Shown here piece by piece: positions 24,483-46,285 of a DNA stretch of 64,000 bases. The stretch comes from Rhizobium sp. C4 (lineage in GTDB: Bacteria > Pseudomonadota > Alphaproteobacteria > Rhizobiales > Rhizobiaceae): positions 1 through 64,000 of the forward strand of contig NZ_JAJNCX010000017.1 in assembly GCF_021026315.1 (NCBI RefSeq). The letters run 5' to 3'. The translations under genes and the position numbers were made by a program. Numbering within the stretch: position 1 is the stretch's first letter; each line of letters starts with the position of its first letter. The notes below the pieces were generated by a model. It was not told the DNA's origin. It did not search any database and saw only the letters and a program-made list of their open reading frames with translations.

Positions 24483-25521
24483 ACCACACCCTCGACGCCC
24501 CTCGATCCTCACCAACCCTTAACGACGTTTCCGCTTTCTGACCGCTCCCCCGTCCGAAACCCAGGCATTCCCGCTCTCCACAACTTGCGATTTCCGTCAA
24601 CCCACGGTTATGTTCGAGCCGATCTTTCAAGCGATGGCGTTGCGATGCCGAACCGAAGAGCCATCAATCCCGTGCGCAAGCCATTGAGAATCCTGATCCT
24701 CCTCCTGATTGCGTTGCGGCTGCTGGTGCTGGCGAGTTGCGGCAGGGATTACGACTGGCACCAGAAGCTGACTGTTGAGGTCGAAACGCCTGAAGGCTTG
24801 AAGGCCGGCTCCAGTGTGATGTCAGCAAGGCTCATAGACACGCATGGCCCTTTCGTTCCGGCGGAGGCAAATGGCGTCAGCTTTCAATTGAACGGGGAAG
24901 CCGTTGCATTGGAAGTGTCGCAAGGGCGATATCTGTTCGTGCTTCTCAGAGATATTCCGGCACTGAACTGGCTGATTTATCCCAAGATGGAGAGTGTCAA
25001 GGCGGGCGCACTTCTGGAAAACGGCGATGACGGAGGCGCCGGCATAGTCGCGCTTCCCCGCAGCCAATACCCCCTCCTCGTCACCTTCGACGACATCAAC
25101 GACCCGGCAAGCGTCAAGCGCGTCGACCCCGCCAATCTCGAAGCCACCTTCGGCCCCGGCTATCGACTGAACGGGATCACGCTGTCGCTGACGAAGGAGC
25201 CGGTGACGAAGGGCGAGGTGGAGAAGGTGTTGGGGTGGTGGTGCGAATACAGGACAGAAAACGCCCGATTGAATGGCTCAACCAGTATCGCAATTTCAAC
25301 AAACGAGCTGCCGGATGTTTTGGGGACGGGCGCATTTAGAGTTGGAGATTGCAGCTTGTGATCCGAGATCGAGCCAGCTCGCGTCGGCGAGCTGAAAGGA
25401 CTCTTTAAAAGAGTCTCCCCGCCCGCGGACGCGGGCGACTGGATGCCGGATCGGGTCCGGCATGACGGACGGAGAGGTTGAGCCTCAGTCCCCCACTCCC
25501 CCTTCGCCGCAACCTCCACAC
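24483..25521. repeat. Inverted mosaic duplication, left copy
   Basis: This segment corresponds, in reverse orientation, to 45265-46285. Similarity alternates: an upstream flank (about 24495-24600) looks about 90% identical, the 5' coding part is diverged, a 180-base core (25063-25239) differs at only a handful of positions, the 3' coding part is unrelated, and the downstream flank (about 25405-25521) is again closely similar. The flank includes ATGCCGGA/TCCGGCAT (25443-25463) and a 21-nt piece that in the other copy is the end of tlpA. Confidence 0.85.
24645..25361 (+). CDS. Putative lipoprotein, mosaic paralogue of the gene at 45.4-46.1 kb
   Basis: A protein of about 238 residues with a basic start, a Leu-rich signal segment and the lipobox LASC. 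I do not recognise a named domain. Residues about 140-199 (from QYPLLVTFDDIN to VEKVLGW) are almost identical to the other copy; the preceding half aligns weakly (ALEVSQGRYLFVLL against VLEVAPGRYLFALL), and the last 40 residues are unrelated. A GTG at 24672 matches the start of the paralogue and may be the true one. The new C-terminus could reflect recombination or an old frameshift; a non-functional copy cannot be excluded. Confidence 0.65.
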   Translation: MPNRRAINPVRKPLRILILLLIALRLLVLASCGRDYDWHQKLTVEVETPEGLKAGSSVMSARLIDTHGPFVPAEANGVSFQLNGEAVALEVSQGRYLFVLLRDIPALNWLIYPKMESVKAGALLENGDDGGAGIVALPRSQYPLLVTFDDINDPASVKRVDPANLEATFGPGYRLNGITLSLTKEPVTKGEVEKVLGWWCEYRTENARLNGSTSIAISTNELPDVLGTGAFRVGDCSL

Positions 25522-25524
25522 CCT

Positions 25525-26712
25525 CTAAAACTTCATCCCCGGCACCGCCAGCGGATTGTCCGTCAGCGCCGCCCGATCCGCACCACCCACGCGCGGCTTG
25601 CCGATAAACGCATCGAAGAGATCACGCACGAAATCCTCTTCGAGGTCCTTGGTGATCAGCACCAGCCGCGTGCGGCGATCCTCGCCGGGCCAGGCGTCCA
25701 GCCGCGCCGGCGGGTGGAGCGTCGACTGGGCGGCATGCAGCACCAGCGGCCGCGACGGATCGTCGGAGAGCATGACGATCGCCTTCATGCGCAACAGCTT
25801 CTCGCCATGCGCCGAGCGCAGGAGGTCCACGAACATGGCTACGGCGTTCCGGTCGATCGGCTGGTCATGCACGATGGAGAAGGAGCGGATGCTGGCATCG
25901 TGGCGGTTCACGTCGTCATGGCTGTGGTGATGGTGGCCATGGGCGTGAGGCGCATGATCGTGGTCATGGGCGTGATGATCTTGGCCGTCATGGTGATGAT
26001 GGCCGTGGTCATGGTGCCCATGGTCATCGTGATGATGATCCCGCGCCTTGTCCTCATGTGCCAGCCAGCGCGCCACATCCGGGCTCTTGGCCGTCACGTC
26101 GAAATAGCCGGCTTCCAGCAGCCTGGCCGTGCCCGCCTCATCGCCATCGGCATCGAGGATGCGCGCATTCGGATTGATTGCCATCAGCCGCGCGGCCAGC
26201 ACATTGACCTCGGACGGTTCGGCCATGGCCGTCTTGGAAATCACCAGCCGGTCGGCCACCGCCGCCTGCCGGCGTGCTTCTTCGTGATTGTCGAGCGAGC
26301 GCATGCCATTCAGCGCGTCGATCACCGTCACGACGCCGTCGAGATGGAAATTCTGCGCCAGAACCGGATTGCCGATGACCGATTGCAGAACCGGCACCGG
26401 ATCGGCAAGCCCCGTCGTCTCGATGACGACGCGCGAGATCGGCTTCATCTTGCCCGTCTGCATCAGATCGATGAACGAGGCGAGCGTGTCGACCAGCTCG
26501 CCGCGCACCGTGCAGCAGAGGCACCCGTCGGAAAGCTCCACCATCTGGTCGCCGGATGTCTCGACCAGCATGTGGTCGATGCCGACATCGCCGAATTCGT
26601 TGATGATGACGGCGCAGTCGGAGAGCTGCCGATCCTTCAGCAGCCGGTTGAGCAGCGTCGATTTGCCGGCGCCGAGAAAGCCGGTGATGATGGAAACGGG
26701 GATGCTTTTCAC
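25525..26712 (-). CDS. COG0523 (CobW-like) GTPase with His-rich metal-binding loop
   Basis: A 395-residue G3E-family P-loop GTPase metallochaperone. Walker A is GFLGAGKST (residues 11-19), the metal motif is CLCC (in DGCLCCTVRG), and the guanine motif is SKTA (in LVISKTAMAE). Between the GTPase and C-terminal CobW domains lies a stretch of about 45 residues that is mostly His and Asp (near 225-270). This points to zinc (ZnuA/ZagA-type) or cobalt handling; genuine CobW clusters with cobN, which is not here. It ends just after the duplicated flank and lies 9 nt downstream of the D,D-carboxypeptidase gene. Confidence 0.93.
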   Translation of the reverse strand: MKSIPVSIITGFLGAGKSTLLNRLLKDRQLSDCAVIINEFGDVGIDHMLVETSGDQMVELSDGCLCCTVRGELVDTLASFIDLMQTGKMKPISRVVIETTGLADPVPVLQSVIGNPVLAQNFHLDGVVTVIDALNGMRSLDNHEEARRQAAVADRLVISKTAMAEPSEVNVLAARLMAINPNARILDADGDEAGTARLLEAGYFDVTAKSPDVARWLAHEDKARDHHHDDHGHHDHGHHHHDGQDHHAHDHDHAPHAHGHHHHSHDDVNRHDASIRSFSIVHDQPIDRNAVAMFVDLLRSAHGEKLLRMKAIVMLSDDPSRPLVLHAAQSTLHPPARLDAWPGEDRRTRLVLITKDLEEDFVRDLFDAFIGKPRVGGADRAALTDNPLAVPGMKF

Positions 26713-26721
26713 GAGGCGCCC

Positions 26722-27840
26722 TTACTCTTGCGAAGGACGCGGCTTCGGGATCGGAATGCGCTTGAGCTTCGGCCCGCCATCGCCCTGCTCGATCCCGTCG
26801 CCATTGGCCGCGCCCGGCTCCGGCGGCAGGAGGTCGGCGACGACAAAGCGCGGATCGTGATCCATCTCGTGCAGATAGGGCGACTTGAGCTTCATCTTGC
26901 CCTCTTCGTCACGTCCCTCGGAACGCACCTGCGCGGCCTTCGGATTGCAGATCTCGTCGCGCACGTCGGCCACCTGATCGCGGGTCGCGCCGTAGGGCGC
27001 AAGGCTCGACAATGTGTCGCCGCCCATCATGGTCTTGGTCAGGCCCAGTTGCAGCAGGTCGGCCGCCTGATCGGCGCGCCCGCCAAGGCTGTCGGCGCCG
27101 AGAACGACGGCCACCACCGTGCGCCCGCCGCGCGTGGCCGAGCCGATCTGGTTGAAGCCGGACGAGCAGATGAAGCCCGTCTTCATGCCGTCCGCGCCGT
27201 CGAAACGGCCGATCAGCAGATTGTAGTTGGTGTATTTCTTGGTGCCGTTGATGAAGCCTTCGAGCGAGAAATAGCTCGCATATTCGGGAAACTCGCGGCG
27301 CAGCGCCACGGTCAGCACGGCCAGATCACGCGCCGTCGTATACTGCCCCTGTTCGGGCATGCCATTGGCATTGACGAAATGGCTGGAGAACATGCCGAGC
27401 CTTGCGGCTTCCGCATTCATCATCGACACGAAATTGTCGTCCGAGCCGCCCACTGCCTCGCCGATCGCCATGGCGATATCGTTGGCTGACTTGACCAGCA
27501 TGATCTTCAGCGCCGTGTCCATCGTCATGCGCGCGCCGGGCTTGAAATACATCTTGCTCGGCTTCTGCGCCGCCGCCTGCTTCGACATGACCACGGGCGT
27601 GTCGAGCGTGATGCGGCCGCTTTTCAGCGCCTTGAAGGTGACGTAGGAGGTCATCAGCTTGGTGAGCGAGGCCGGATACCAGCGCTGGAAGGCCTCCTCG
27701 TGATAGATCACCTTGCCGGTCGCGACATCGACGACGATCTTCGGATTGGCAAGCGCATCCGCAGGCAGGGCAATCGTTGCCGCCACAGCCAGCGCCACCG
27801 CGCCGCCCATCACCTTCCGCAGGATGCCGACCGCTACCAT
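26722..27840 (-). CDS. D-alanyl-D-alanine carboxypeptidase (DacA/PBP5-like)
   Basis: A 372-residue periplasmic serine peptidase that trims the terminal D-Ala of peptidoglycan stem peptides. The signal sequence covers about residues 1-31. SxxK is SLTK (S58, K61), the second motif is SAN in KSANDIAMAI, and the third is KTG in GMKTGF. The C-terminal part is short and polar, ending in a Pro/Lys-rich tail, with no clear amphipathic anchor. It precedes the COG0523 GTPase by 9 nt on the same strand; D,D-carboxypeptidases are zinc-independent, so the pairing is not self-explanatory. Confidence 0.93.
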   Translation of the reverse strand: MVAVGILRKVMGGAVALAVAATIALPADALANPKIVVDVATGKVIYHEEAFQRWYPASLTKLMTSYVTFKALKSGRITLDTPVVMSKQAAAQKPSKMYFKPGARMTMDTALKIMLVKSANDIAMAIGEAVGGSDDNFVSMMNAEAARLGMFSSHFVNANGMPEQGQYTTARDLAVLTVALRREFPEYASYFSLEGFINGTKKYTNYNLLIGRFDGADGMKTGFICSSGFNQIGSATRGGRTVVAVVLGADSLGGRADQAADLLQLGLTKTMMGGDTLSSLAPYGATRDQVADVRDEICNPKAAQVRSEGRDEEGKMKLKSPYLHEMDHDPRFVVADLLPPEPGAANGDGIEQGDGGPKLKRIPIPKPRPSQE

Positions 27841-28007
27841 GTGAGAAACTCCTTGAAATGAACGTTCGTCGCTCGAAACCCTGGGTCTATTACCCTATAT
27901 GGACGGGACGAGGAAAGGCCATTGATTGATTTGGCGCGCCGGTCCAAGATCGGTTCGACACCTTTATGGCCCGCCGCATACACACCAATGAAGACAGGAT
28001 TTCGACT

Positions 28008-29168
28008 ATGCCGATTTTGAACCGCGCCGCAGAGCTTCAGGACGAAGTCGCCGGCTGGCGGAGGAAGCTGCACGAGAACCCGGAACTGCTCTACGACGTC
28101 CACGCCACTGCCGCCTTCGTTGCCGACAAGCTGAAGGAACTGGGCGTTGACGAGGTGGTGACCGGCCTTGGCCGCACCGGCGTCGTCGGCATCATCAAGG
28201 GCAAGGGCCCCGGCCGCACGATCGGCCTTCGCGCCGACATGGACGCGCTGCCGATCAACGAACTGACCGGCAAGCCCTGGGCCTCCAAGACCCCCGGCAA
28301 GATGCATGCCTGCGGCCATGACGGCCACACCGCCATGCTCCTGGGTGCGGCAAAATACCTCGCCGAGACGCGCAACTTCACCGGCTCTGTCGCGGTCATC
28401 TTCCAGCCCGCCGAAGAAGGCGGCGCCGGCGGCTACGAGATGGTGAAAGACGGCATGATGGAGCGCTTCGGCATTGCCGAAGTCTATGGCATGCACAATT
28501 TCCCCGGCGTTCCGGTCGGAACCTTCGCCATCCGCAAGGGCGCGATCATGGCCTCGACGGACGAGTTCATGATCACGGTCAAGGGGCTGGGCGGCCATGC
28601 GGCCATGCCGAACCGCGGCGTCGACCCGGTCGTCATCGGCTCGCAGATCGTCATGGCGCTGCAGACCATTGCCTCGCGCAATGCCGACCCGCTGGAATCG
28701 GTCGTCGTCTCGGTCACCAAATTCAATGCCGGCAATGCCCATAACGTCATCCCGAACGAGGCCAAGCTCGGTGGCACTGTGCGCACGCTGAAAAAGGAAA
28801 TGCGCGACCTCGCCGAAAAGCGGCTGAAGGAAATCGCGCAAGGGATTGCCGCCGCCGCCGGCGGCAGCGCGGAGATCTGGTATGACCGCAACTACCCGGT
28901 CACCTACAACCACGATCTCGAAACCGAACATGCGATTGCAGCAGCCGTCGCGATTGCCGGCGAGGCCAATGTCGAGAAGAACATGAACGCCACCATGGGC
29001 GGCGAGGACTTCTCCTACATGCTCGAAGCCCGCCCCGGCGCCTTCATCGTCATCGGCAACGGCGAAAGCGCCAGCCTCCACCACCCGGAATACGACTTCA
29101 ACGACGAGATCATCCCGCACGGGATTTCCTATTGGGTGAAGCTGGCCGAAAGCCGGTTGGCGGGGTGA
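28008..29168 (+). CDS. M20 family amidohydrolase (hippurate hydrolase-like)
   Basis: A 386-residue M20D metallopeptidase that removes acyl groups from N-acyl amino acids or similar amides. Metal ligands are visible in MHACGHDGHTAML, in QPAEEGGAGG, in MHNFP, and near the end in GGEDFSYML and LHHPEYDFND. The dimerisation domain lies at about residues 185-295. I took the ATG at 28008 (MPILNRAAELQDEV), with AGGA 8 nt upstream; an in-frame extension to 27966 is not conserved-looking. It is divergent from the carboxypeptidase. The substrate is unknown. Confidence 0.92.
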   Translation: MPILNRAAELQDEVAGWRRKLHENPELLYDVHATAAFVADKLKELGVDEVVTGLGRTGVVGIIKGKGPGRTIGLRADMDALPINELTGKPWASKTPGKMHACGHDGHTAMLLGAAKYLAETRNFTGSVAVIFQPAEEGGAGGYEMVKDGMMERFGIAEVYGMHNFPGVPVGTFAIRKGAIMASTDEFMITVKGLGGHAAMPNRGVDPVVIGSQIVMALQTIASRNADPLESVVVSVTKFNAGNAHNVIPNEAKLGGTVRTLKKEMRDLAEKRLKEIAQGIAAAAGGSAEIWYDRNYPVTYNHDLETEHAIAAAVAIAGEANVEKNMNATMGGEDFSYMLEARPGAFIVIGNGESASLHHPEYDFNDEIIPHGISYWVKLAESRLAG

Positions 29169-29189
29169 GAGGCTGGTCCTCTCCCCTTG

Positions 29190-29640
29190 TGGGACCGTTG
29201 CATAACTCGCGCTTGTTGGGATTTTGAGGATTGAAGACGCAGCTTTTCGAGCCCGGTTGTTGATGTGCTGGGCTTCTGGGTTGTTCTTTGTCGGCGTTGG
29301 GTGGTTTTGGGCGCAGTTCGCCCCTGGTCAAGTCGTCGTCAGCGTGACTCAGTGGCACATGTTGAAGGTGAGTGGCAGCAAGCAGCACCTGCGCCCTGGT
29401 CTTCGCCAGTGGTTGCGGAAGGTCGCGGTGATGCTTGTTGGCCCGCCGCATCAGGCGCGGCTTGATCCCGCGTTGCATGAGCACCCGCTCCGCGATCATA
29501 GGTGTGATAGGCGCCTCCGACCAGGACCGTGCGCTTGTCGCCGCGGACCAGATCATCGGCCACGACCTTGTCGTTGACATTGGCCGGCGTCGTGATAACC
29601 CCCCGCCGGACTGTCTTCCCACCGCCGCCAGACCCTGCAG
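29190..29640 (-). mobile_element. Degenerate IS5-family insertion sequence remnant
   Basis: This segment carries a broken transposase on the minus strand and lies in a 655-base region with no intact gene. Its left edge (near 29190) directly follows CTCCCCTTGTGGG, the start of a palindromic repeat, as if the element had inserted there. No intact terminal inverted repeat pair or target duplication was found, so the boundaries are approximate. Confidence 0.6.
29326..29601 (-). pseudogene. IS5-type transposase fragment, frameshifted and internally deleted
   Basis: Reading from 29601 downward, one frame gives TPANVNDKVVADDL then RGDKRTVLVGGAYHTYDR, typical of the DDE core of IS5-type transposases around the second Asp. 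The reading then shifts frame to GIKPRLMRRANKHHRDLP, and a deletion joins this to AQVLLAATHLQHV, normally the extreme C-terminus (AQVLLAA-FN-RR). The region with the catalytic Glu is missing and there is no start codon, so it cannot encode an active enzyme. Confidence 0.65.
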
Positions 29641-29666
29641 AACCAGTGCATCATTTCAGTGGAATT

Positions 29667-29696
29667 TTTCCATCTCCCCGCAAGGCGAGATGGAAA
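29667..29696. repeat. Perfect 10-bp hairpin
   Basis: TTTCCATCTC (29667-29676) and GAGATGGAAA (29687-29696) flank a 10-nt loop. The CATCTCCCCGCAAGG core resembles the CTCCCC palindromes elsewhere. It lies 127 nt before hisC. Confidence 0.65.
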
Positions 29697-29823
29697 GTGG
29701 CGCTGAAGGATTCGCCGGACTGGACAATCGTTAGTCTGCGCTGATCCGTCCCAAATCCCCACACTCGACAAAAACCCCTTTCCGCACTATTGCCTTGGCC
29801 TTCCAAATTCAGGGGCTTTTCGC

Positions 29824-30942
29824 ATGACCATGACTGCTTCCGCACCCGTTCCGCGTCCCGGCGTGATGGAGATCTCGGCCTATGTGCCGGGCAAGGATGG
29901 CGCTGGCTTTTCCGGCCGGATCTTCAAGCTGTCGTCCAACGAGACGCCGCTGGGGCCGAGCCCAGCGGCGATCGAGGCCTATCGTCATGCGGCGGAGCAT
30001 CTGGAGCTTTATCCGGACGGTCAGGCGACCGAGTTGCGCGAGGCCATTGGCGCGGTGCATGGGTTGAACCCGGCCAATATCATCTGCGGCGCTGGGTCCG
30101 ACGAACTGCTTGGCCTGATTTGCCGCTGCTATCTGGGTGCTGGCGATGAGGCGATCATCACCGAGCATGGGTTCCTCGTCTATCGCATCCAGATCACCGC
30201 TTCGGGCGCCACGCCCGTCACGGTGAAGGAAGACGATTGCCGGGTGAATGTCGACAACATCCTCGCCGCCGTCACCGACAAGACCAAGGCGGTCTTCATC
30301 GCCAATCCGGGCAATCCGACCGGCTCCTATATTCCGATGGCCGATATCCGCCGCCTGCATGCCGGTCTGCCGGCGCATGTGCTCTTGGTTCTGGATGCGG
30401 CTTACGCCGAGTATGTCCGCCGCAACGATTACGAGACGGGCGTCGAGCTGGTATCCGCCAATCGCAATGTCGTCATGTGCCGCACCTTCTCCAAGGCCTA
30501 TGGCCTGGCGGCGCTGCGCGTCGGCTGGCTCTATGGGCCGGCGGAAATCCTTGCCGCCCTGAACCGTGTGCGCGGACCCTTCAACATGACCGTGCCGGGC
30601 CTTGCAGCAGCGGCTGCCGCCGTGCGCGATCAGGCCTTTGTCGAAAAGGCGGTGGCGCATAATTCGCTCTGGCTGGAAAAGCTGACGCATGCCTTCGAGG
30701 CGATGGGCCTCAAGGTCACGCCATCGGTCGCCAATTTCGTGCTGATCCATTTCCCGGATACCGATGGCAAGCGCGCGTCGGATGCGGATGCGTTCCTGAC
30801 CTCGCGCGGCTACATCCTGCGCGGCGTTGCCGGCTACGGCCTGCCCAATGCCCTGCGCATGACGGTCGGCACGGAAGAGGCCAATCGCGGTGTCATCGAG
30901 GCACTGGATGAATTCATGGCCCAAGAAGCGGGGCGCAAGTAA
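29824..30942 (+). CDS. hisC: Histidinol-phosphate aminotransferase family protein
   Basis: A 372-residue class II PLP aminotransferase. [12 protein letters not shown] near residue 37, the [13 protein letters not shown] motif, LDAAYAEYV, and [13 protein letters not shown] with the PLP Lys fit HisC. Enzymes of this type interconvert imidazole-acetol phosphate and histidinol phosphate, and many also transaminate aromatic 2-oxo acids. The gene is directly followed by tyrC, so this copy more likely serves tyrosine/phenylalanine synthesis; a second hisC may exist elsewhere. It has no partner histidine genes here. Confidence 0.9.
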
Positions 30943-30943
30943 C

Positions 30944-31882
30944 GTGGCAAAGCTTTACGAAAACATTGCCCTGATCGGCATCGGCCTCATCGGCTCGTCG
31001 ATTGCGCGCGACATCAAGGCCCATGGTCTGGCCTCCAAGGTCACGATCTCGACGCGTAGCGCCGCGACGCTGAAGCGCGCGGAAGAGCTGGGGCTGGGCG
31101 ACGCCTATGTGGCGGATGCGGCGGAAGCCGTGCGCGATGCCGATCTCGTCATCGTCTCGGTTCCGGTTGGCGCTTCGGGTGCTGTCGCCGAGCAGATTGC
31201 CGGCAGCCTGAAGCCCGGCGCGACCGTTACCGACGTGGGGTCGACGAAGGCGTCCGTCATTGCGCAGATGCAGCCGCATATGCCGGAACATGTGCATTTC
31301 ATTCCCGGCCACCCGATTGCCGGCACCGAACATTCCGGCCCTGACGCCGGCTTTGTCGGCCTCTTCACGGGCCGCTGGTGCATTCTGACGCCGGTTCCGG
31401 GGACGGATGCTGGAGCGGTCGCCAAGCTGCGCGATTTCTGGAACGCGCTCGGCTCCAAGGTCGAGGAGATGGACCCTGCGCATCACGACAAGGTGCTCGC
31501 CATCGTGTCGCATCTGCCGCATATCATCGCCTACAATATCGTCGGCACCGCGGACGATCTGGAGACGGTGACGGAATCGGAAGTCATCAAATATTCGGCC
31601 TCCGGCTTCCGCGACTTCACGCGTCTCGCCTCCTCCGATCCGACCATGTGGCGGGATGTGTGCCTGCACAACAAGGACGCGATCCTGGAAATGCTGGCGC
31701 GGTTTTCCGAAGACCTCGCCTATCTCCAGCGGGCGATCCGCTGGGGCGATGGCGACAAGCTCTTCGATCTCTTCACCCGCACCCGCGCCATCCGCCGCTC
31801 GATCATCGAGGCGGGCCAGGATACGGCAGCGCCGAACTTCGGCCGTAACGCTGCCGCCGGCGAGCTCAAAGCGGGGGAATGA
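30944..31882 (+). CDS. tyrC: Prephenate/arogenate (cyclohexadienyl) dehydrogenase
   Basis: A 312-residue NAD-dependent dehydrogenase that decarboxylates prephenate or arogenate on the way to tyrosine. The N-terminal Rossmann motif is GIGLIGSSIA. HPIAGTEHSGPDAG carries the catalytic His and GGR-type residues, and SHLPHIIAYNIVG follows. There is no chorismate mutase or ACT domain. I took the GTG at 30944, one base after the hisC stop; an ATG further upstream would overlap hisC. Its 3' end overlaps the convergent DUF2125 gene by 17 nt. Confidence 0.92.
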   Translation: MAKLYENIALIGIGLIGSSIARDIKAHGLASKVTISTRSAATLKRAEELGLGDAYVADAAEAVRDADLVIVSVPVGASGAVAEQIAGSLKPGATVTDVGSTKASVIAQMQPHMPEHVHFIPGHPIAGTEHSGPDAGFVGLFTGRWCILTPVPGTDAGAVAKLRDFWNALGSKVEEMDPAHHDKVLAIVSHLPHIIAYNIVGTADDLETVTESEVIKYSASGFRDFTRLASSDPTMWRDVCLHNKDAILEMLARFSEDLAYLQRAIRWGDGDKLFDLFTRTRAIRRSIIEAGQDTAAPNFGRNAAAGELKAGE

Positions 31883-32864
31883 CCCCAAGCGGAATGATGC
31901 CGAGCTGGACGCGCCCGTCGCGGATGTTCAGCGTCACCTTGCCGGTCTTGCCGTCGGCCGAGAGGCTTTTCAGCAGGATCGAGGCGGTGTCGATGATGGT
32001 GGTTGCCCGCGGGAAGCTCTTGGAGAGCGTCGCCTGAAGGGCGGCGTAATTTTCCACATCGATGGTCAGGTCGCCGGTGAGCAGGCCGTTTTCGGCGATC
32101 CGGAACGGGCCGGAAACGGCGAGCGTGCCGTTACTGCCGAAATTGATGGCGAGCCGCTTGATGTCGCCCTGGATTGCCTCGCCGGCAACGATGGGCGCGC
32201 CGGAGAGAACATTGCCGCGCCCGTCGAGCGTCGCCTCCAGGCTGGTCGAAAATACCGGCAGGTTGACCGGGATGAAGCCGGTTTCGACCTTCGAGCCTTC
32301 CGAGCGGGAGGATATGTCGAGATCCGGGCCGTTCTGGCGGACATTGAGTTCGGCGTGATCGCTGGTGATCTTCAGCGGGGTCGGGCCCGAGGGCAGCGTG
32401 ACCGTACTGTCGATCTTGCCGATCTGGACCAAGCCGTGGGTGATGCCTGTGAGGTCGCCGCCAATATCGCTGTCGAGGTTCTGCCAGTTCGTGTCGGTGG
32501 TCAGGCCGTTGGCGAACTTCGCCTTGACCGGGCTTGCGATCGAGAATGTGGCGTGTAGCGGATCATGGACGAAGGTGGTCGTGCGCACCGTGCCGGTGGA
32601 AAGATCGATGCCTGTCACCGGGTCCACGAATTTCGCCGACTTGCAGACAGCGGAAACCCGCGCCGGCAAGCCCGTGAAATCATATTCGGCGCAGCTGTCG
32701 GGCGCATTCGTGCCCGGCGGGGCAACGACGGCATTCAGATAGACCCTGGCCTGATGCGCGGCGAAATAGAGGGCCCCACCATAAAGCACGACAACGAGCA
32801 GGATCAGTTTGGCCCACCAGGGAAATCGGCGGCGGCGATTGACGGGCTCGCTGTAAGTCGGCAT
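31866..32864 (-). CDS. DUF2125 exported or membrane-anchored protein
   Basis: A 332-residue protein with a basic N-terminus and a single hydrophobic segment (WAKLILLVVVLYGGALYFAA, about residues 17-36) that anchors or exports it. The remainder is beta-rich, with an early Cys pair (SCAEY and AVCKSA), and matches DUF2125, an alphaproteobacterial family of unknown function with AsmA-like character. It converges on tyrC and is divergent from the ChaC-type gene, 47 nt away. Confidence 0.87.
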   Translation of the reverse strand: MPTYSEPVNRRRRFPWWAKLILLVVVLYGGALYFAAHQARVYLNAVVAPPGTNAPDSCAEYDFTGLPARVSAVCKSAKFVDPVTGIDLSTGTVRTTTFVHDPLHATFSIASPVKAKFANGLTTDTNWQNLDSDIGGDLTGITHGLVQIGKIDSTVTLPSGPTPLKITSDHAELNVRQNGPDLDISSRSEGSKVETGFIPVNLPVFSTSLEATLDGRGNVLSGAPIVAGEAIQGDIKRLAINFGSNGTLAVSGPFRIAENGLLTGDLTIDVENYAALQATLSKSFPRATTIIDTASILLKSLSADGKTGKVTLNIRDGRVQLGIIPLGVIPPL

Positions 32865-32911
32865 GGAAAACTCCGTGTTGGTGATCGAACAGGCGTATAC
32901 TGAGGCGCGAT

Positions 32912-37584: not shown

Positions 37585-37637
37585 TCTGCCAAGCCCGTGC
37601 TAGGCATACGGGAGTTTCATTCCCCCGGAGCCCCTTC

Positions 37638-38180: not shown

Positions 38181-38318
38181 CGGCACCAGCGGTCGCTGTT
38201 TGTTAACCACAGTCGCGATGTGAGGGGTCTGAAGCGATCTCTTCGGCCGGATGTTTACCTGTCGACAAGGAAAGTCTGGTGTTTTGTCCCATAAGACAAC
38301 ATGAGCAGGGATAGACAC

Positions 38319-38678
38319 GTGGCCAGGATTCTTATCACCGAAGACGAAGATTCATTGCGGTCCTTCGTCGCCCGTGCGCTCCGTCTCGACGGACACGAAA
38401 CCATGGAAGCTGCCGACGGGGCCGAAGGCCTCGAACGCCTGACCGAAGGCGAATTCGATCTTCTTCTTTCCGATATCCGCATGCCCGTCATGGACGGCAT
38501 CGAGCTTGCCCATCAGGCGGCCGACCGTTTCCCTGGCCTGAAAATCCTGCTGATGACCGGCTATGCCGAGCAGCGCGAGCGCGCCGACGACCTCGCGGTG
38601 AAGATCGTGGACGTCGTCTCCAAGCCCTTCAGCCTGCCCGATATCCGCCTTGCGGTCGCGCAGGCGCTCGCGGCCTGA
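38319..38678 (+). CDS. cpdR: CpdR-type single-domain response regulator
   Basis: A receiver domain of about 119 residues and nothing more. Acidic residues TEDEDS, the phosphoacceptor Asp in LLSDIRMPVMDG, Thr in LMTGYAE and Lys in VSKPF are all present. CpdR, phosphorylated through ChpT, controls ClpXP-dependent proteolysis of CtrA and related regulators; the short length and the TGYAEQRERA segment fit this group. I chose the GTG at 38319 because AGGGA lies 7 nt upstream; an ATG at 38301 has no such site. Confidence 0.88.
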   Translation: MARILITEDEDSLRSFVARALRLDGHETMEAADGAEGLERLTEGEFDLLLSDIRMPVMDGIELAHQAADRFPGLKILLMTGYAEQRERADDLAVKIVDVVSKPFSLPDIRLAVAQALAA

Positions 38679-38724
38679 GTTCTCTCATCTTCCGAATAGT
38701 GACGGTTGAACAGGAGCAGCTGCG

Positions 38725-41400
38725 TTACTGCAGCTGCAAAAGCCGTTCGAGATACTGGCGTTCCAGATCGTTGGGTTTGGCATTTTCGCCGAGCTTGCGG
38801 CGGATGGTTTCAAGAATCTGACGTGCGCGTTCCGCGTCAAATTCATCCGGCACCTTCACGTCGTTGTCGAGTTCCGCGCTTGTACGGCCCTGTTGACGGC
38901 CAAGCGGGTCGAGGCCTTCGCGGTTCTGGCCCTGCTGCTGCATGCCGCCCTGACCGCTGCCCTGCTGCCCCTGCTGGGCAAGCTGCTGCATCAGTTCGCC
39001 CGCACCCTTGCGCAGCGCCTCGATGGCGCGGCCCTGCGAATCAAGCGCGCTCTGCCCCTTGCCGTCGTTGAGTGCCCCGGTCGCGTCCTTCATTTCCTTG
39101 CCGGCGCTGTTGAAGCCTTCTCCCGGCTTGACGCCGAACTTGCGCAGGCCTTCCTGCAGGCTCTTCAGATCCTTCTCGAGCTGCTTCTGGCGCTCTGACA
39201 GCTCCTTCAGCGCCTGCTTCAGCTGTTCCTTGGTCATGGAATCTTCCGGCCGGCCGCCCTGTTGCGGCTTCTGCGCGCCGGGATCCGGCGGCATCGGCTG
39301 GTTCATTCCATCCTGCTGTTCATTTGGCTGGCCGTTCGGATCGCTATCTTCGTTCTCGCCCTGCTGGTTCGGGGCGTTTTCGAAGAGCTGCTGGTCCTGC
39401 CCGTTGTTCGGATCGCCATATTGCATGCGATCGCGCAGCGCCCGTTCCTTCGAGAACGTATCGTCGAGAAGCTTCTTCTGGTCCTGCAGCAGCTTGCCGA
39501 GCTTGTCGATCTCGGCGCGCATCTGGTCCTTGCCCTGCTGCTTGCCCTGATTGGGGCGGGCGGTCTGCAGGTTGTTCATCATGCGTTGCATCTGGTTCAG
39601 AAGATTGCGTGCCTCGTCGCGTGACCCGCTTTCGGCCAGCTTCTGGATCTCGTCCAGCATCTTTTCCAGATCCTGCTGGCGCAGCATCTTGCGCTGATCG
39701 GCCGACATCTGGTTCTGGTCGGGATTGTTCTGCATCTGCTTGGCGAGCGCCTGCATGAACTCGTTCATGGCCTTGCGCAGTTCGTTCGTCAGCTTGCGGA
39801 TTTCCTCGTCCGAGGCGTTGCGGTTCAGAGCGTCGGAGAGTGCCTGCTGCGCATCCTTGACCCTGCGCTCGGCATTGGCGACATCGCCGCCTTCGATCCC
39901 GAGCGCGATCTGCCAGAGGTAATCCGCGGTCGCCTTCAGGTCCTTCTCGGAACGGGCAAGCCGCATCTGCTGGCCGGCGGAGCGGATGAGCAGGAATTGC
40001 GAGAGGTCGGGGATGGTTTCTTCCGGGCGGATGAACAGCGCCTCGTTCAACTCGATGGCGCGGTCCAGCTTGCGCTCGTCGAGTGCGAAGACCTGACGCT
40101 CTTCGGCAACGGCGGCGGCCAGCGGTTCGCGGAAATTGCGCGCCGGCAGGATGATGTCCTTCGTTTCGCTGCGGCCGGTATGGCCGGCAGCATCGGTGGC
40201 GATCAGCGTCAGATGCACCTTCTTGCCGGCCAGCGGATGCTCGGTCAGGTCGCGGCTCGTCACGCCCTTGGCCTCGCGCGCGTCGGTGCGCGGTAGTTCG
40301 AGGCGGAAGTCCGGCAGCGGGTAGAGTGCGACCGCGCCCGGTTCCTGTTCCGCCGGCTCGATCAGCGCCTGTGCGGAGGTGAGCCCGTAATCGTCGCTTG
40401 CCTTGTAGGTGATTTCGAGCGCGCCGCTGACGGCCCGCTGCGGTTCGCCTTCGAAGGCGATCTTCGGCGTCTCGTCCCTCTGGATCGCGAAGGTCCAGCG
40501 GTTGCCGCCGACATCAAGCATGCCGGCAACCGTCAACGCCACCTGGAAGGTCTTGCCGTCGGCTGGCTGCTTGTCTTCTGCCTTCGGATTGCCTTCGGCG
40601 ACGAGCGGAACGGGCGTTTGCGCGCCGGTGGGCGCGAAGGTCACCGGCACATCCGTCTTGTCGCCCGAGAGGCGAACCGTCAGGCGCGAGCCTTCCGGGA
40701 CGGTGAGCGGCTTCGGGTCGCCGGCATTGGCATCGACGGTCAGGAAGACCGGCGGCTTGCGGGTGTAGACCGGCGGCGTCACCCAGGCATCGACACGCAG
40801 CCCGGCAATGGCACCGCTGGCCGGCATCGGGCGGAACGGATCGGAAAGCCGGCCGGCATTGTTGGACCAGGAAAAGCCGAAGGCGACGAAAAGCAAGAGC
40901 GCCGGGATGGCGCGAAGCGCGAAGCGGTCGTGTGCGGCGATATCGGGCGTCGGCGTGCCGGCCGTCAGCGAGCCGACAAGGCGGGCCATGCGGCGCTTGT
41001 GCTCGCGCCACAGCGCCTCGCCGAAGGGGCCGCTTGTGGTGGCCGGAACGTCTTCGAGTGCGGCCAGCGCCCGGTGTGCAAGGCCGCTGCGTTCTTCAAT
41101 ACGCCGGGTGGCTTCCGCATCCGTCGGCCATTTGGCGGTGACGATGCGCAGGAGCGACCAGAGGAAGACGAGACCCAAAAGAATGGCAAGGCCGCGCGCA
41201 AGGCTTGGCGGCATCAGCCGGAAGAGGCCGAACCAGCTTGTCGCGACATAAAGGGCCGCGACCGACAGCGCAGGCAAGCCGAGCGGCATCAGCCGCTCGA
41301 TTAAAAGCACGATCTTGGCAAGGCCGCGCGAGAGCGCAATACGCCGTTTCAGGCGGCTCATGCCGTCTTCCGCGCCTGCGCCTGTCTCGCGATTATCCAT
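38725..41400 (-). CDS. TIGR02302/DUF4175 large membrane protein
   Basis: An 891-residue protein matching the alphaproteobacterial TIGR02302 (DUF4175) family, function unknown. Two or three N-terminal membrane spans lie before residue 170. A beta-rich extracytoplasmic part (about 190-430) follows, then a long helical segment (about 430-700) very rich in Gln, Asn and Met, including QQ-rich runs. The C-terminus is Gln-rich before a helical tail. AAGGAG precedes the ATG at 41400. It is the last gene downstream of argH-lptM-lysA. The Q/N-rich part may be disordered. Confidence 0.9.
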   Translation of the reverse strand: MDNRETGAGAEDGMSRLKRRIALSRGLAKIVLLIERLMPLGLPALSVAALYVATSWFGLFRLMPPSLARGLAILLGLVFLWSLLRIVTAKWPTDAEATRRIEERSGLAHRALAALEDVPATTSGPFGEALWREHKRRMARLVGSLTAGTPTPDIAAHDRFALRAIPALLLFVAFGFSWSNNAGRLSDPFRPMPASGAIAGLRVDAWVTPPVYTRKPPVFLTVDANAGDPKPLTVPEGSRLTVRLSGDKTDVPVTFAPTGAQTPVPLVAEGNPKAEDKQPADGKTFQVALTVAGMLDVGGNRWTFAIQRDETPKIAFEGEPQRAVSGALEITYKASDDYGLTSAQALIEPAEQEPGAVALYPLPDFRLELPRTDAREAKGVTSRDLTEHPLAGKKVHLTLIATDAAGHTGRSETKDIILPARNFREPLAAAVAEERQVFALDERKLDRAIELNEALFIRPEETIPDLSQFLLIRSAGQQMRLARSEKDLKATADYLWQIALGIEGGDVANAERRVKDAQQALSDALNRNASDEEIRKLTNELRKAMNEFMQALAKQMQNNPDQNQMSADQRKMLRQQDLEKMLDEIQKLAESGSRDEARNLLNQMQRMMNNLQTARPNQGKQQGKDQMRAEIDKLGKLLQDQKKLLDDTFSKERALRDRMQYGDPNNGQDQQLFENAPNQQGENEDSDPNGQPNEQQDGMNQPMPPDPGAQKPQQGGRPEDSMTKEQLKQALKELSERQKQLEKDLKSLQEGLRKFGVKPGEGFNSAGKEMKDATGALNDGKGQSALDSQGRAIEALRKGAGELMQQLAQQGQQGSGQGGMQQQGQNREGLDPLGRQQGRTSAELDNDVKVPDEFDAERARQILETIRRKLGENAKPNDLERQYLERLLQLQ

Positions 41401-41466
41401 GCCGCTCCTTCATGTGTTCGAGCGTCAGAATAACATTCTTTGTGGCAAAGGCGAGGGCAGGACGGC

Positions 41467-42735
41467 TTATTCCAGCCAGTCGGGCACGGAATCCAGACCG
41501 ATCAGTTCCTCGTAGCTCGTGCGCGGGCGGATCACATGGTAGCGATCGCCGTGGACCAGAACCTCGGGGACCAGAAGACGGCTGTTATAGGTGCCGGCCT
41601 GAACCGCACCGTAGGCGCCAGCCGACCCGATGGAGAGAAGATCACCGGGCTTCGGCATCATCATCTCGCGGTCGAGCGCCATATAGTCGCCCGTCTCGCA
41701 GACGGGGCCGACGACATCTGCCTTGATGAGCGGTGCGCTGGCAGCGGAAATGACGGCCGGCTTGATCTCGTGCCAGGCCTCGTAAAGCGTCGGGCGGACG
41801 AGGTCGTTCATCGCAACATCGACAATCACGAAGGTCTTCTCGCCGCCGTCCTTCACATAGAGGACTTCGGTCAAGAGGATGCCGGCATTGCCGGCGATCA
41901 GGCGGCCGGGTTCGGCGACGATCTTGCAATCGAGCCCGCGCAGCTGGTTCTTCACCACGTCGGCATAATCGGCCGGGAGCGGCGGAATGTCGTTGCTGTC
42001 CTTGTACGGAATGCCGAGGCCGCCACCGATATCGACATGCTCGATCGTGTGGCCATCAGCGCGCAGCGTCTCGACCAGTTCCTTCAGCAGGCGGAAAGCA
42101 TCGGCAAAGGGCTGCAGCTCGGTGATCTGGCTGCCGATATGCATGTCGATGCCGGTGACTTCGATGCCGGGCAGGCGCGCGGCATGGGCATAGACGGCGC
42201 GTGCGCGGTCATAGGAAATGCCGAACTTGTTTTCCTTCTTGCCGGTCGAAATCTTGGCATGCGTCTTGGCGTCCACATCGGGGTTGATGCGGAAGGAGAC
42301 CGGCGCGCGCTTGCCGGCCTTGACGGCGCGGGCGTTCAGAACTTCGAGTTCCGGCTCGGATTCGACATTGAAGCAATAGATGCCGGTTTCCAGCGCCAGA
42401 TCCATTTCGCGCACGGTCTTGCCGACGCCCGAAAACATGATGCGCGAGGCGGGAATGCCGGCAGCCAGCGCACGGCGCAGTTCGCCTTCGGAAACGACGT
42501 CGATGCCGGCGCCGAGGCGGCCCAGAACCTTGAGCACGGCCTGATTGGAATTCGCCTTCATCGCATAGCAGACGAGCGAATCGACATCCTTGAAGGCCTG
42601 CGAGAAGACCGTGTAGTGGCGTTCCAGCGTTGCGGTCGAATAGACATAGCAGGGGGTGCCGACGGCGGCGGCGATTTCTGCCACCGGCACGTCTTCGGCG
42701 TGGAGCACGCCGTCGCGATATTCAAAATGGTTCAC
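41467..42735 (-). CDS. lysA: Diaminopimelate decarboxylase
   Basis: A 422-residue PLP enzyme converting meso-diaminopimelate to lysine. CYAMKANSNQAVL carries the PLP Lys, HVDIGGGLGIPY is the phosphate-binding glycine loop, EPGRLIAGNAG is nearby, and CETGDYMALDR supplies the other subunit's active-site Cys. No gross alterations. It lies 12 nt after the small lipoprotein gene and belongs to argH-lptM-lysA-TIGR02302. Confidence 0.97.
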   Translation of the reverse strand: MNHFEYRDGVLHAEDVPVAEIAAAVGTPCYVYSTATLERHYTVFSQAFKDVDSLVCYAMKANSNQAVLKVLGRLGAGIDVVSEGELRRALAAGIPASRIMFSGVGKTVREMDLALETGIYCFNVESEPELEVLNARAVKAGKRAPVSFRINPDVDAKTHAKISTGKKENKFGISYDRARAVYAHAARLPGIEVTGIDMHIGSQITELQPFADAFRLLKELVETLRADGHTIEHVDIGGGLGIPYKDSNDIPPLPADYADVVKNQLRGLDCKIVAEPGRLIAGNAGILLTEVLYVKDGGEKTFVIVDVAMNDLVRPTLYEAWHEIKPAVISAASAPLIKADVVGPVCETGDYMALDREMMMPKPGDLLSIGSAGAYGAVQAGTYNSRLLVPEVLVHGDRYHVIRPRTSYEELIGLDSVPDWLE

Positions 42736-42747
42736 GGGGGAGCGACC

Positions 42748-42948
42748 TTATAGAAGCGGATCGAGAATGAAGGGCTTGTCTTCCTTCGGGAGCGGCTTGG
42801 TCTTGACCGTGCCGGTTGCCTTGTCCATCGGCTGGCCCTCATAGGTGCCGGGCGCATCAAGGTCGCCCTTGCGGCCGCAGGAGGAAACGCTTGTCACAAT
42901 GGCGACGCAGACGGCGGCAAGCGCCAGTTTCTTGAACAATTCCGGCAT
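42748..42948 (-). CDS. lptM: Small lipoprotein, LptM/YifL-like
   Basis: A 66-residue lipoprotein. The signal peptide ends with the lipobox SSCG (Cys about residue 24), directly followed by GRKGDLDAPG, the CGxKGxLxxP motif of the YifL/LptM family. LptM assists maturation of the LptDE LPS translocon in E. coli. Position between argH and lysA is the typical rhizobial setting. The remaining 30 residues are polar and probably unstructured. Confidence 0.9.
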   Translation of the reverse strand: MPELFKKLALAAVCVAIVTSVSSCGRKGDLDAPGTYEGQPMDKATGTVKTKPLPKEDKPFILDPLL

Positions 42949-43049
42949 CGGAAATGCAGGCCCTTCTTGTTAACTTGCGAAAACACATAGCGGATTGCCG
43001 GCGCGCTTGCACTCCAATTTTGCTGAAGTGAAATCGCGGATGGTGATTG

Positions 43050-43200
43050 ATGGGCGAAGGCAGTGCCACATCCGTCTCCCCCCTTGTGGTGGAGATGGCG
43101 GCAGCCAGAGGGGGCCTTTGCCGCGAATGCTGAGCAAGCGGAGATAAAGACCCCTCCCCAACCCTCCCCACAAGGGGGAGGGAGAGCGGCCGTCGCGGCC
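43050..43200. repeat. CTCCCC/GGGGAG palindromic repeats between argH and lptM
   Basis: The unit CCGTCTCCCCCCTTGTGG-TGGAGATGGCGGCAGCCAGAG is followed by CCCTCCCCACAAGGGGGAGGG and a GGCC-rich end. Nearly the same 150 bases, in the opposite order, occur at 51.02-51.20 kb. The block lies inside a gap of the argH-lysA operon; lptM might be read from a promoter inside or beyond it, but I could not identify one. Confidence 0.8.
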
Positions 43201-43202
43201 CC

Positions 43203-44597
<1,395 letters not shown>

Positions 44598-44625
44598 GGA
44601 TCACGATTCCGGAGTTGATGTCGAT

Positions 44626-45288
44626 ATGGTCACTGAAAACCGAAAGGCGCTTCCCGTCTTCACGCTCGCCGCAGCGGCAGTGGTTCTGGGTGTCCTGTCC
44701 GGAGCCGTCGCGGTTTACATGAAGAGTTCCGGGTCTGGCAATGGTGCCGTTGCCGCGAGTGGCGATTGCGCCAAGGCGGATGGGCTTCTGACGAAGCTGA
44801 AACCGCTGATGAAGGGTCAGGTTGCCGCCCTTGTCGCCGCCAATCCGCCGCGCTCGCTGGGCGACTTCTCCTTCAAGGGGCCGGACGGCAAGACGATGAC
44901 ACTTGCCGATTTCAAGGGCAAGACCGTGCTTCTCAATCTCTGGGCGACATGGTGCATCCCCTGCCGCACCGAAATGCCGGAGCTGGATGCTCTGCAGAAA
45001 GAAATGGGCGCGGACGGGAAGTTCGAGGTCGCGGCGATCAATATCGACACCGGCAACGACGACAAGCCCAACGCGTTCCGGAAGGACACCGGCATCACCT
45101 CGCTCGCCGTCTATCGCGACAAAACGCTCAACACCTTCAATCGCCTCAAGAAAGAAGGTCTAGCCTTCGGCCTGCCGGCAACGATGCTGATCGACAAGGA
45201 CGGGTGTCTGGTCGCCGCGATGAACGGGCCGGCGGCGTGGCATAGCGATGATGCCAAGGCGCTGGTGGTTGCGGCGAAGGGGGAGTGA
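44626..45288 (+). CDS. tlpA: TlpA-type periplasmic thiol:disulfide oxidoreductase
   Basis: A 220-residue thioredoxin-fold protein with one N-terminal membrane anchor (about residues 9-31). The active site is WCIPC (C110, C113) followed by RTEMPELD, and GLPATMLID is the cis-Pro loop. TlpA reduces copper-binding chaperones and CoxB during cytochrome oxidase assembly. I took the ATG at 44626, with GGAG upstream; an in-frame ATG at 44596 is possible. Its last codons (VVAAKGE) lie in a stretch of about 21 nt that is repeated in the left copy of the mosaic duplication. Confidence 0.92.
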   Translation: MVTENRKALPVFTLAAAAVVLGVLSGAVAVYMKSSGSGNGAVAASGDCAKADGLLTKLKPLMKGQVAALVAANPPRSLGDFSFKGPDGKTMTLADFKGKTVLLNLWATWCIPCRTEMPELDALQKEMGADGKFEVAAINIDTGNDDKPNAFRKDTGITSLAVYRDKTLNTFNRLKKEGLAFGLPATMLIDKDGCLVAAMNGPAAWHSDDAKALVVAAKGE

Positions 45289-46285
45289 GGGGGCGGAGGC
45301 TCAACCTCTCCGTCCGTCATGCCGGACCCGATCCGGCATCCAGTCGCCCGCGTCTGCGGGCGGGGAAACGCTTCAATTTGCGTCCTTTCAAGCGGGATAC
45401 TTAGCGAATCTGCGTCGCCTCTTCACTTCTTCCAATGATCAAGCGAAAGAAAGTCGGCGGGCGTAATTAGTTGCTCTGGTGTAAAGTCTTTCATCAGCGA
45501 CGGCGCATGAGGATCGAGATAGAAGCGCTTGTTACCAACATCGATCAGCCACCCCAACACCTTCTCCACCTCGCCCTTCGTCACCGGCTCTTTCGTCAGC
45601 GACAGCGTGATCCCGTTCAGCCGATAGCCGGGGCCGAAGGTGGCTTCGAGATTGGCGGGGTCGACACGCTTGACGCTGGCCGGGTTGTTGATGTCGTCGA
45701 AGGTGACGAGGAGGGGGTATTGGTTGCTCGAAAGTTCGCGGGTCTCGCCGGTCATGGCCTTGAACTTCTCGATGGTGGCCTGCGGACCCTCACCGGGGAA
45801 AAACACGTTCCATGGGTCACGGTTGCTGCTGAGCAGTGCGAAGAGATATCGGCCCGGCGCAACCTCCAGAACGACGGCTTCGCCCCTTCGGGTGATTGTC
45901 GCATTATCGAAGCCCGCAGCGGGTCCCTTTAGCAGCGGCGGCGTGTAGGAGATTTCCTCGACGCTTGATGTAGTCTTTTCGCCGCTTGGCGTTTGCACAG
46001 ACAGCTCCACTTTTTGCCTGACGACATATTTGTCGAAGCACCCCGTCAGCACCAGCAGGGGCAGGACGATGACGATCAGGCTTCTCAAGAAAGCGCGCAT
46101 GGGGTCGAGGGCTCTCCGGTTCGGCGAGGATGCCGTTGCTTGCAGGATCGGTTCAACCATAGAGGTCCCGCCGCTGAAATCGCAAGTTGCAGAGGGCGGG
46201 AATGCCTGGGTTTCGGGTGGGGGAGCGGCCGGAAAGCGGAAATGTCGTTAAGGGTTGGTGAGGATGAGGGGCGTTGAGGTTGTGG
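45265..46285. repeat. Inverted mosaic duplication, right copy
   Basis: This is the counterpart of 24483-25521 in reverse orientation. Closely similar blocks: the tlpA end with the ATGCCGGA/TCCGGCAT palindrome (45319-45339), the 180-base coding core (about 45548-45725) and the 5' flank (about 46170-46280). The intervening coding parts differ. The two copies are about 19.7 kb apart and inverted, so recombination between them would invert the cobW-to-tlpA segment. Confidence 0.85.
45423..46100 (-). CDS. Putative lipoprotein, mosaic paralogue of the gene at 24.6-25.4 kb
   Basis: A protein of about 225 residues with a signal peptide and lipobox LTGC (Cys about 19). The mature part begins with a beta-rich half (VELSVQTPSGEKTTSSVEEI); the core from QYPLLVTFDDIN to KVLGW is almost identical to the other copy; the tail (RFYLDPHAPSLMKDF) is different. 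Function unknown. I took the ATG at 46100, with GGAGAG upstream; an ATG at 46160 in frame would put 20 residues before the signal peptide. It converges on tlpA. Confidence 0.75.
   Translation of the reverse strand: MRAFLRSLIVIVLPLLVLTGCFDKYVVRQKVELSVQTPSGEKTTSSVEEISYTPPLLKGPAAGFDNATITRRGEAVVLEVAPGRYLFALLSSNRDPWNVFFPGEGPQATIEKFKAMTGETRELSSNQYPLLVTFDDINNPASVKRVDPANLEATFGPGYRLNGITLSLTKEPVTKGEVEKVLGWLIDVGNKRFYLDPHAPSLMKDFTPEQLITPADFLSLDHWKK

What the first reader, a model, noticed from the sequence alone, without database searches (positions are those of the whole stretch)
24483..46285. Two inverted, mosaic copies of a lipoprotein locus with alternating conserved and divergent blocks
The loci at 24.5-25.5 and 45.3-46.3 kb share both flanks and a 180-bp coding core of very high identity, while the N-terminal coding half is only distantly similar and the C-terminal tails are unrelated. 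Simple duplication followed by drift would not give this; gene conversion or recombination at fixed blocks would. A conserved core plus variable ends in a secreted lipoprotein suggests a diversifying surface or inhibitor-type protein family. No such system is known to me under this arrangement.
Basis: partly seen in the sequence, partly recalled or inferred. Interest (0 to 1): 0.75.

Follow-up and report, generated by a model that had tools for sequence, protein, structure and literature searches.

The report
Mosaic lipoprotein pair, probable toxin antidotes
Two copies of a small membrane-anchored protein gene have nearly identical middles but swapped ends; relatives of this gene sit next to a secreted bacterial toxin gene, so they are probably antidotes that bacteria reshuffle to survive neighbours' toxins.

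Summary
Copies A (24675-25361 +) and B (45423-46100 -) share flanks and a 55-codon core (160/165 nt, 29/32 fourfold sites), while N-module (31% aa) and tail (14% aa) differ. B is the older locus, beside a tlpA-like gene; sister genomes carry other N-module/tail combinations there. A is a later copy carrying a tlpA scrap.

The genes belong to a family with no Pfam name (33 members scanned). Relatives lie directly upstream of an RTX protein with a lipase-like N-terminus; in Shinella the operon also has HlyC-type acyltransferase and T1SS genes. Of 86 full-length genes in lipoprotein-selected loci, 36 have the toxin start beside them, 34 as short scraps; 12 of 68 loci are tandem.

Best reading: immunity lipoproteins of T1SS RTX lipase-type toxins. 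A and B would be orphans; no toxin homologue was found in their genome. Immunity is inferred, not shown. Similar cores with dissimilar N-modules recur in 18 of 25 within-locus pairs. Staphylococcal TilA/Lpl lipoproteins work alike without detectable homology.

The parts
24505..24594 (+). upstream block of copy A shared with B
   Evidence: 91% over 90 nt to 46176-46265; no other match in the genome at E<=0.001
24675..25361 (+). copy A lipoprotein gene (GTG start by comparison with B; ATG at 24645 possible); lipobox LASC by eye
   Evidence: ORF; family HMM; codon alignment
25068..25232 (+). conserved core of A (55 codons); the variable N-module lies before it
   Evidence: 160/165 nt with B; coordinates from the block lengths
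25233..25358 (+). variable tail of A, of a class also found in L027, L087 and L097
25409..25518 (+). downstream block of A: dispersed repeat, then an outer part ending in about 26 bp of tlpA-like 3' end (about 25493-25518)
45263..45373 (-). downstream block of B; 45263-45288 is the 3' end of the tlpA-like gene
44494..45288 (+). tlpA-like (thioredoxin-fold by eye) gene, convergent neighbour that marks the B locus in six genomes
45423..46100 (-). copy B lipoprotein gene (ATG at 46100; ATG at 46160 possible); lipobox LTGC by eye
45555..45719 (-). conserved core of B; variable N-module upstream of it
45426..45554 (-). variable tail of B
46176..46265 (-). upstream block of B, conserved in sister alleles

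Best explanation
A and B encode immunity lipoproteins for type I-secreted RTX toxins with an N-terminal lipase-like domain. In the complete Shinella operon the order is HlyC-type acyltransferase - lipoprotein - RTX toxin - ABC - HlyD. The lipoprotein, anchored outside the cytoplasm, would bind and block the toxin's N-terminal domain (inferred). In this genome both copies are orphans: no toxin homologue was found, so they would protect against toxins of neighbours. New variants arise by homologous recombination through the conserved core and flanks, which exchanges N-module and tail separately. Copy A arose when a B-type allele, with its flanks and a scrap of the tlpA-like gene, was copied to the 24.5-kb site.
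For: Shown: the toxin start lies next to the family gene (gaps -7 to +42 bp) in 36 of 86 full-length genes of lipoprotein-selected loci, 25 of 74 without the eight loci that seeded the toxin HMM; 48 of 53 toxin-HMM hits follow a family gene. 11 of 13 loci fetched by a toxin search have a family gene upstream, three of them partial. Of 7 plasmid records with the toxin, L054 and L058 have clear members upstream, L145, L146 and L148 divergent ones (HMM E 7e-18, 4e-14, 7e-35 in an eight-sequence search), L147 one by eye, L149 none listed. Operon. Toxin scraps (34 of 36), tandem copies (12 of 68 loci). Toxin N-terminus similarity tracks that of lipoprotein core and N-module (Mantel 0.585, 0.537; n=30; 0 of 1000 permutations). 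No toxin homologue in the own genome. Allele swapping at the B locus. Core homogenised within loci (fourfold 559/715 against 0.40 between loci; N-module 341/630). Precedents: TilA-TslA (PMC10730906), Smlt3024/Smlt3025 (PMC6759196).
Against: No binding, toxicity or protection was measured. 50 of 86 family genes have no toxin start beside them, A and B among them. The lipase call rests on a GHSLGG motif and sub-threshold Pfam hits (Lipase_3 19.8 bits, cut-off 22; E 0.05 in L128). L129 has a long toxin-like ORF without a detected family gene. Two AlphaFold models of modest confidence (pLDDT 70.9, 74.3) match no known immunity fold. FrpD, another lipoprotein upstream of an RTX gene, was proposed to be a tether. 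Toxin similarity tracks the tail least (0.26), and the covariation may be co-inheritance. Not all paralogue pairs fit: L038, L051, L105, L112 and L130 have diverged cores.
Confidence: 0.75

Rival explanations
1. FrpD-like accessory: the lipoprotein tethers or presents the secreted RTX protein, or its N-terminal piece, on the producer's surface rather than neutralising it.
For: FrpD is a lipoprotein encoded just upstream of an RTX gene and binds the RTX N-terminus; tethering was proposed (PMC3034196, PMC5233953 passages). Same gene order here.
Against: 34 of 36 toxin starts beside family genes are short scraps, 50 of 86 genes have none, and the own genome has no toxin homologue; a tether without cargo would not be expected to persist, multiply and diversify. 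Smlt3025, of FrpD topology, is an immunity protein (PMC6759196).
Confidence: 0.12
2. Lipase chaperone: a membrane-anchored folding factor for the toxin's lipase-like domain.
For: Adjacency to a lipase-like domain and membrane anchor; membrane-anchored lipase foldases are known (recalled).
Against: T1SS substrates bypass the periplasm (established knowledge); orphans and arrays without toxin.
Confidence: 0.04
3. Diversifying surface antigen or receptor decoy unrelated to the toxin; adjacency to the toxin is incidental to some members.
For: Variable ends, conserved core, membrane anchoring; 50 of 86 genes without toxin.
Against: Toxin starts lie within 42 bp of the gene, often overlapping its stop, and nearly all toxin-selected loci carry a family gene upstream (11 of 13).
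Confidence: 0.05
4. Plain duplication of B to A followed by drift under uneven constraint, without recombination.
For: Core is the most conserved part across the family (mean column identity 0.67 against 0.43 and 0.36).
Against: Silent sites: core 29/32 against N-module 8/20; sister species carry other ends at the same locus; tails of one class occur with different N-modules; GC3 step at the core-tail border in five of five alleles.
Confidence: 0.03

Closest known systems
Staphylococcus aureus TilA / tandem lipoproteins (Lpl, DUF576) with the T7SS lipase toxin TslA (PMC10730906)
   Same: Immunity lipoprotein encoded just upstream of a toxin with an N-terminal lipase domain; several non-identical copies; shuffling across a conserved central stretch of about 130 nt (discussion section).
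   Different: No profile match and no fold match; the toxin here is an RTX protein with HlyC and T1SS genes; Gram-negative hosts; single orphans as well as arrays.
FrpD-FrpC of Neisseria meningitidis (PMC3034196, PMC5233953)
   Same: Lipoprotein encoded immediately upstream of an RTX gene; FrpD binds the N-terminal part of the RTX protein.
   Different: No profile match to any PDB chain at E<=1; FrpD not among the 50 listed Foldseek hits of either model; a tethering role was proposed for FrpD; end-swapping was not looked for in those papers.
Smlt3024/Smlt3025 of Stenotrophomonas maltophilia (PMC6759196)
   Different: Effector delivered by a T4SS; immunity protein with FrpD topology; no relation found here by profile.
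EsaG and TipC immunity genes (PMC9484751)
   Same: Immunity paralogues shuffled through blocks of high similarity, with different histories of the variable regions (abstract and one results section).
   Different: Different toxins and secretion (T7SS), tandem clusters in Gram-positives; no sequence comparison with them was made.
RTX bacteriocins of Rhizobium leguminosarum (PMC3034196)
   Same: RTX proteins of the same bacterial order reported as bacteriocins, on plasmids (passages and table).
   Different: Their sequences were not compared and the original paper is not held, so whether the toxin here is one of them is open.
Homogeneous polyimmunity loci of polymorphic toxin systems (PMC3482391)
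   Same: Tandem paralogous immunity genes without a full toxin (passages).
   Different: Here the antidote lies upstream of the toxin, so the scraps are toxin N-termini, and the antidotes are lipoproteins.

Membership tests
TilA / Lpl (DUF576) immunity lipoproteins | Sequence family (profile match) | tested here: not met
   33 members scanned against Pfam-A: no family shared, each stray hit in one member, best E 0.023; no PDB chain by profile at E<=1
TilA / Lpl (DUF576) immunity lipoproteins | Lipoprotein encoded directly upstream of a toxin with an N-terminal lipase domain | tested here: inconclusive
   Position met for part of the family (36 of 86), not for A or B; lipase assignment weak
TilA / Lpl (DUF576) immunity lipoproteins | Shuffling through a conserved central block | tested here: met
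   165-nt core
TilA / Lpl (DUF576) immunity lipoproteins | Toxin secreted by T7SS | tested here: not met
   RTX repeats and annotated T1SS genes in Shinella
FrpD / Smlt3025 | FrpD topology | tested here: inconclusive
   Models of pLDDT 70.9 and 74.3; FrpD not among 50 listed of 816 and 612 matches, listed TM 0.25 or less; the second aligner was not available
FrpD / Smlt3025 | Binding of the RTX N-terminal region | not testable with these tools
   needs a binding assay
T1SS RTX toxin operon | Acyltransferase, RTX protein and T1SS exporters in one operon | tested here: met
   Complete in L054; HlyC upstream of 7 of 86 lipoprotein-selected genes; neither HlyC nor toxin found in the window
Immunity proteins | Protects against the cognate toxin | not testable with these tools
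   bench test
Polyimmunity locus | Tandem immunity paralogues without a full toxin | tested here: met
   12 of 68 loci tandem, for example L050, L087, L088, L102 with three or four copies; A and B lie 20 kb apart, not in tandem
Bacterial lipoprotein | Signal peptide with lipobox | tested here: met
   By eye only: LTGC in B, LASC in A; several relatives have an N-terminal hydrophobic segment without the cysteine

The most novel reading that the evidence does not exclude
Alphaproteobacteria carry a widespread, unnamed antagonism system: RTX lipase toxins exported by T1SS with a HlyC-type acyltransferase, opposed by a dedicated lipoprotein family that is kept as orphans and arrays after the toxin is lost, and whose variants are renewed by core-mediated exchange of two separate variable ends. 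It would be a Gram-negative, apparently non-homologous counterpart of the staphylococcal TslA/TilA system.
Probability: 0.6. Interest if true: 0.75.

Novelty: new variant of a known kind. Interest (0 to 1): 0.62.

Why it matters
If right, it gives a function to an unnamed protein family found in 47 of 394 sampled genomes of the window's bacterial family, and points to a class of RTX toxin-immunity pairs that my literature searches did not find described. One fixed locus with several allele combinations across species is a natural experiment on which end of an immunity protein sets its specificity. It also suggests that the core-recombination design of staphylococcal Lpl genes arose more than once.

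Tried and rejected
Tried without result: Pfam, NCBIfam, PADLOC and PHROGs gave no family above threshold for A and B (one PHROG of unknown function at E 0.012 for A), nor Pfam for 33 members. PDB by profile: none at E<=1. Two AlphaFold models (pLDDT 70.9, 74.3) gave no match at E<=0.001 in PDB; the second gave none in the viral library. LolA-like hits and S. aureus SAOUHSC_02783 appear with TM 0.20 or less and were disregarded. No phage relative at E<=1e-3.

Rejected: the core as a conserved domain only (silent sites); both flanks as dispersed repeats (only about 60 bp of the 3' flank is); a frameshift as the source of A's tail (related tails occur in other genomes). A first identity count with free end gaps inflated low values and stopped with an error; the codon alignment replaced it. 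Single-linkage tail clustering merged 93 of 95 tails; average linkage was used instead.

Limits: the toxin HMM came from eight sequences that themselves follow family genes; counts without those loci are given. Loci L127-L139 were chosen by a toxin search and are kept apart, except that the 53 toxin hits, the 30 Mantel pairs and the 25 within-locus pairs (one pair, L130) include them. Within-locus pairs of one array are not independent. Eleven fragments of family genes (model span under 140) were left out of the 86 and 95. Plasmid records and genomes may include related strains, though no two of the 95 proteins were identical. Genomes from the genome search are unnamed; the window's genome is a draft of 50 contigs.

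Literature: 'not found described' rests on the searches in an open-access library; abstracts, passages or single sections were seen, no paper was read whole.
Full report
Observation. The two loci are as described. The shared blocks are 90 nt upstream (91%), a coding core (186 nt, 95%) and a downstream block (85 nt, 94%; 111 columns by blastn), in inverted orientation. Aligned by codons, A and B agree in 54/55 core residues, 160/165 nt and 29/32 fourfold sites, but only in 33/105 residues and 8/20 fourfold sites of the N-module and 5/37 residues of the tail. Upstream block and core have no other comparable match in the genome. About 60 bp of the downstream block is a dispersed intergenic repeat (36 matches in the genome, A and B included).

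History of the two loci. B lies between a tlpA-like gene and a 3-hydroxyacyl-CoA dehydrogenase-like gene (names by eye). The same place is occupied in G005 (L045) and in a Rhizobium MAG (L024); in G003 (L044) the tlpA side is the same but the other side is rearranged. It is empty in G001, G002 and G004. Locus A is empty in G002, G003 and G005 and holds other sequence in G004; in G001 the left side did not align. The downstream block of A contains about 26 bp of the 3' end of the tlpA-like gene. So B-type DNA was the source and A is the later copy. A is not a copy of the present B allele alone: its N-module is closest to that of the G003 allele (51/109 aa, 60% nt, against 33/105 aa, 45% nt with B).

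Allele swapping. The four B-locus alleles and A share the core at 90-97% nt in all ten pairs. N-modules are at 43-49% nt, except B with L024 (87%) and A with L044 (60%); tails are at 33-46%. The core's fourfold identity between B and L044 or L045 (29/32, 26/32) is close to, or a little above, that of the tlpA-like gene (88/119, 86/117), so the core behaves like resident DNA and the ends like imports. GC3 falls from 0.85-0.91 in the core to 0.45-0.56 in the tail in all five alleles.

The family. Members were found in 11 of 61 genomes of a first draw, the own included, in 47 of 394 genomes of the window's family, on nine plasmid records, and in no phage record. No Pfam family is shared by the 33 aligned members. 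By eye some members have a lipobox and others an N-terminal hydrophobic segment, so anchoring outside the cytoplasm is the common trait.

Toxin link. On Shinella sp. PSBB067 plasmid unnamed2 the gene lies between an annotated toxin-activating lysine-acyltransferase and a 1258-aa calcium-binding protein, followed by T1SS ABC and HlyD genes. Pfam gives HlyC (4e-11), HemolysinCabind (4e-21), and Lipase_3 and Mbeg1-like just below their cut-offs; the protein has a GHSLGG motif. The start of this toxin was then found directly after other family genes. With a toxin HMM from eight sequences, 36 of 86 full-length genes in lipoprotein-selected loci have it at -7 to +42 bp from their stop; without the eight seed loci, 25 of 74. 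Of 53 toxin hits in all scanned loci, 48 follow a family gene; the five others are in L028 (two), L029, L129 and L132. Of 13 loci fetched by a toxin search (12 of 397 genomes of the order matched), 11 have a family gene upstream, three of them partial. Of seven plasmid records with the toxin, five have a family gene upstream by HMM (L054, L058, L145, L146, L148), L147 one by eye, and L149 none in its gene table.

Orphans and arrays. In 34 of the 36 cases the frame from the toxin start is only 23 to 333 aa long; two run 1258 and 2631 aa. Several truncations fall at or just after GHSLGG, as in L091, L096 and L110. Twelve of 68 loci hold tandem copies; in L050, L090 and L102 short toxin scraps stand between successive copies. 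This is what one expects if antidotes are kept when toxins are lost. In the window genome no toxin homologue was found: none at E<=1e-3 with the Shinella N-domain, and best E 0.082 over 32 residues with the same-genus scrap. A and B have no toxin scrap behind them.

A general rule. Over 25 within-locus pairs the core is alike (83% aa, fourfold 559/715) while N-module (40% aa, 341/630) and tail (28% aa, 46/96) are not; between loci the core has 54% aa and fourfold 0.40. By my count of its rows, 18 of 25 pairs have core >=83% nt with N-module <=56% nt. Of the other seven, L090 and one L087 pair have similar N-modules, and L038, L051, L105, L112 and L130 have diverged cores. N-module and tail vary almost independently (Mantel 0.071, p 0.04, n=91); eight tail classes of three or more members recur between loci; nine pairs have similar N-modules (score ratio >=0.75) with dissimilar tails (<0.35), and 11 pairs the reverse (tails >=0.7, N-modules <0.4).

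Mechanism. Shown: linkage, orphan state, arrays, block-wise exchange. Inferred: that the lipoprotein binds and blocks the toxin's lipase-like domain. Toxin N-terminus similarity follows that of lipoprotein core (0.585) and N-module (0.537) and less that of the tail (0.26); none of 1000 permutations reached these values, n=30. That fits contact but also co-inheritance, and it speaks more for the N-module than for the tail.

Known systems that work alike. TilA of S. aureus is a lipoprotein encoded just upstream of the lipase toxin TslA, binds it with Kd 14.2 nM, comes in several copies and is shuffled across a conserved central stretch of about 130 nt (PMC10730906: passages and discussion section). 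EsaG genes recombine through three blocks (PMC9484751: abstract and one results section). FrpD is a lipoprotein encoded upstream of the RTX gene frpC and binds the FrpC N-terminus (PMC3034196, PMC5233953: passages). Smlt3025 is an immunity protein of FrpD topology against an effector like RTX N-termini (PMC6759196: passages). RTX bacteriocins are reported from R. leguminosarum (PMC3034196: passages). So the principle is known; this family, its toxin type and its hosts were not found described in the searches made. I call it a new variant of a known kind and do not file it under TilA or FrpD.

Noticed in passing
window 25409-25472 and 45310-45373: GC-rich palindromic intergenic repeat of about 60 bp; 36 matches to the 3' flank query in the genome, A and B included.
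   Followed up: partly
window 46291-46473, 1-123, about 5156-5231: Another partly palindromic repeat at these places; in relatives it also stands at occupied and empty lipoprotein sites.
   Followed up: no
L044 10397-10434 (G003): In G003 the upstream flank of the B-locus gene is followed by DNA matching window 10495 onward: a rearrangement with its break at the lipoprotein gene.
   Followed up: no
L078 7464-8250 (G004): Locus A in G004 holds about 780 bp of other sequence with a 102-aa ORF that looks secreted and contains cysteines.
   Followed up: partly
L028 176-3870, L029 3677-4678 (Thalassobius sp. Cn5-15): Family core, an out-of-frame toxin piece and a HlyC-like stretch run together in three similar scrambled ORFs.
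   Followed up: no
L052 (R. leguminosarum bv. viciae 248 plasmid pRle248d): A family gene without a toxin-HMM hit, with caspase-family protein genes on both sides nearby; an RTX bacteriocin is reported for strain 248 (PMC3034196).
   Followed up: no
L130 6368-6794: A toxin N-terminus runs into RTX-like repeats in one short frame, as if the middle had been deleted.
   Followed up: no
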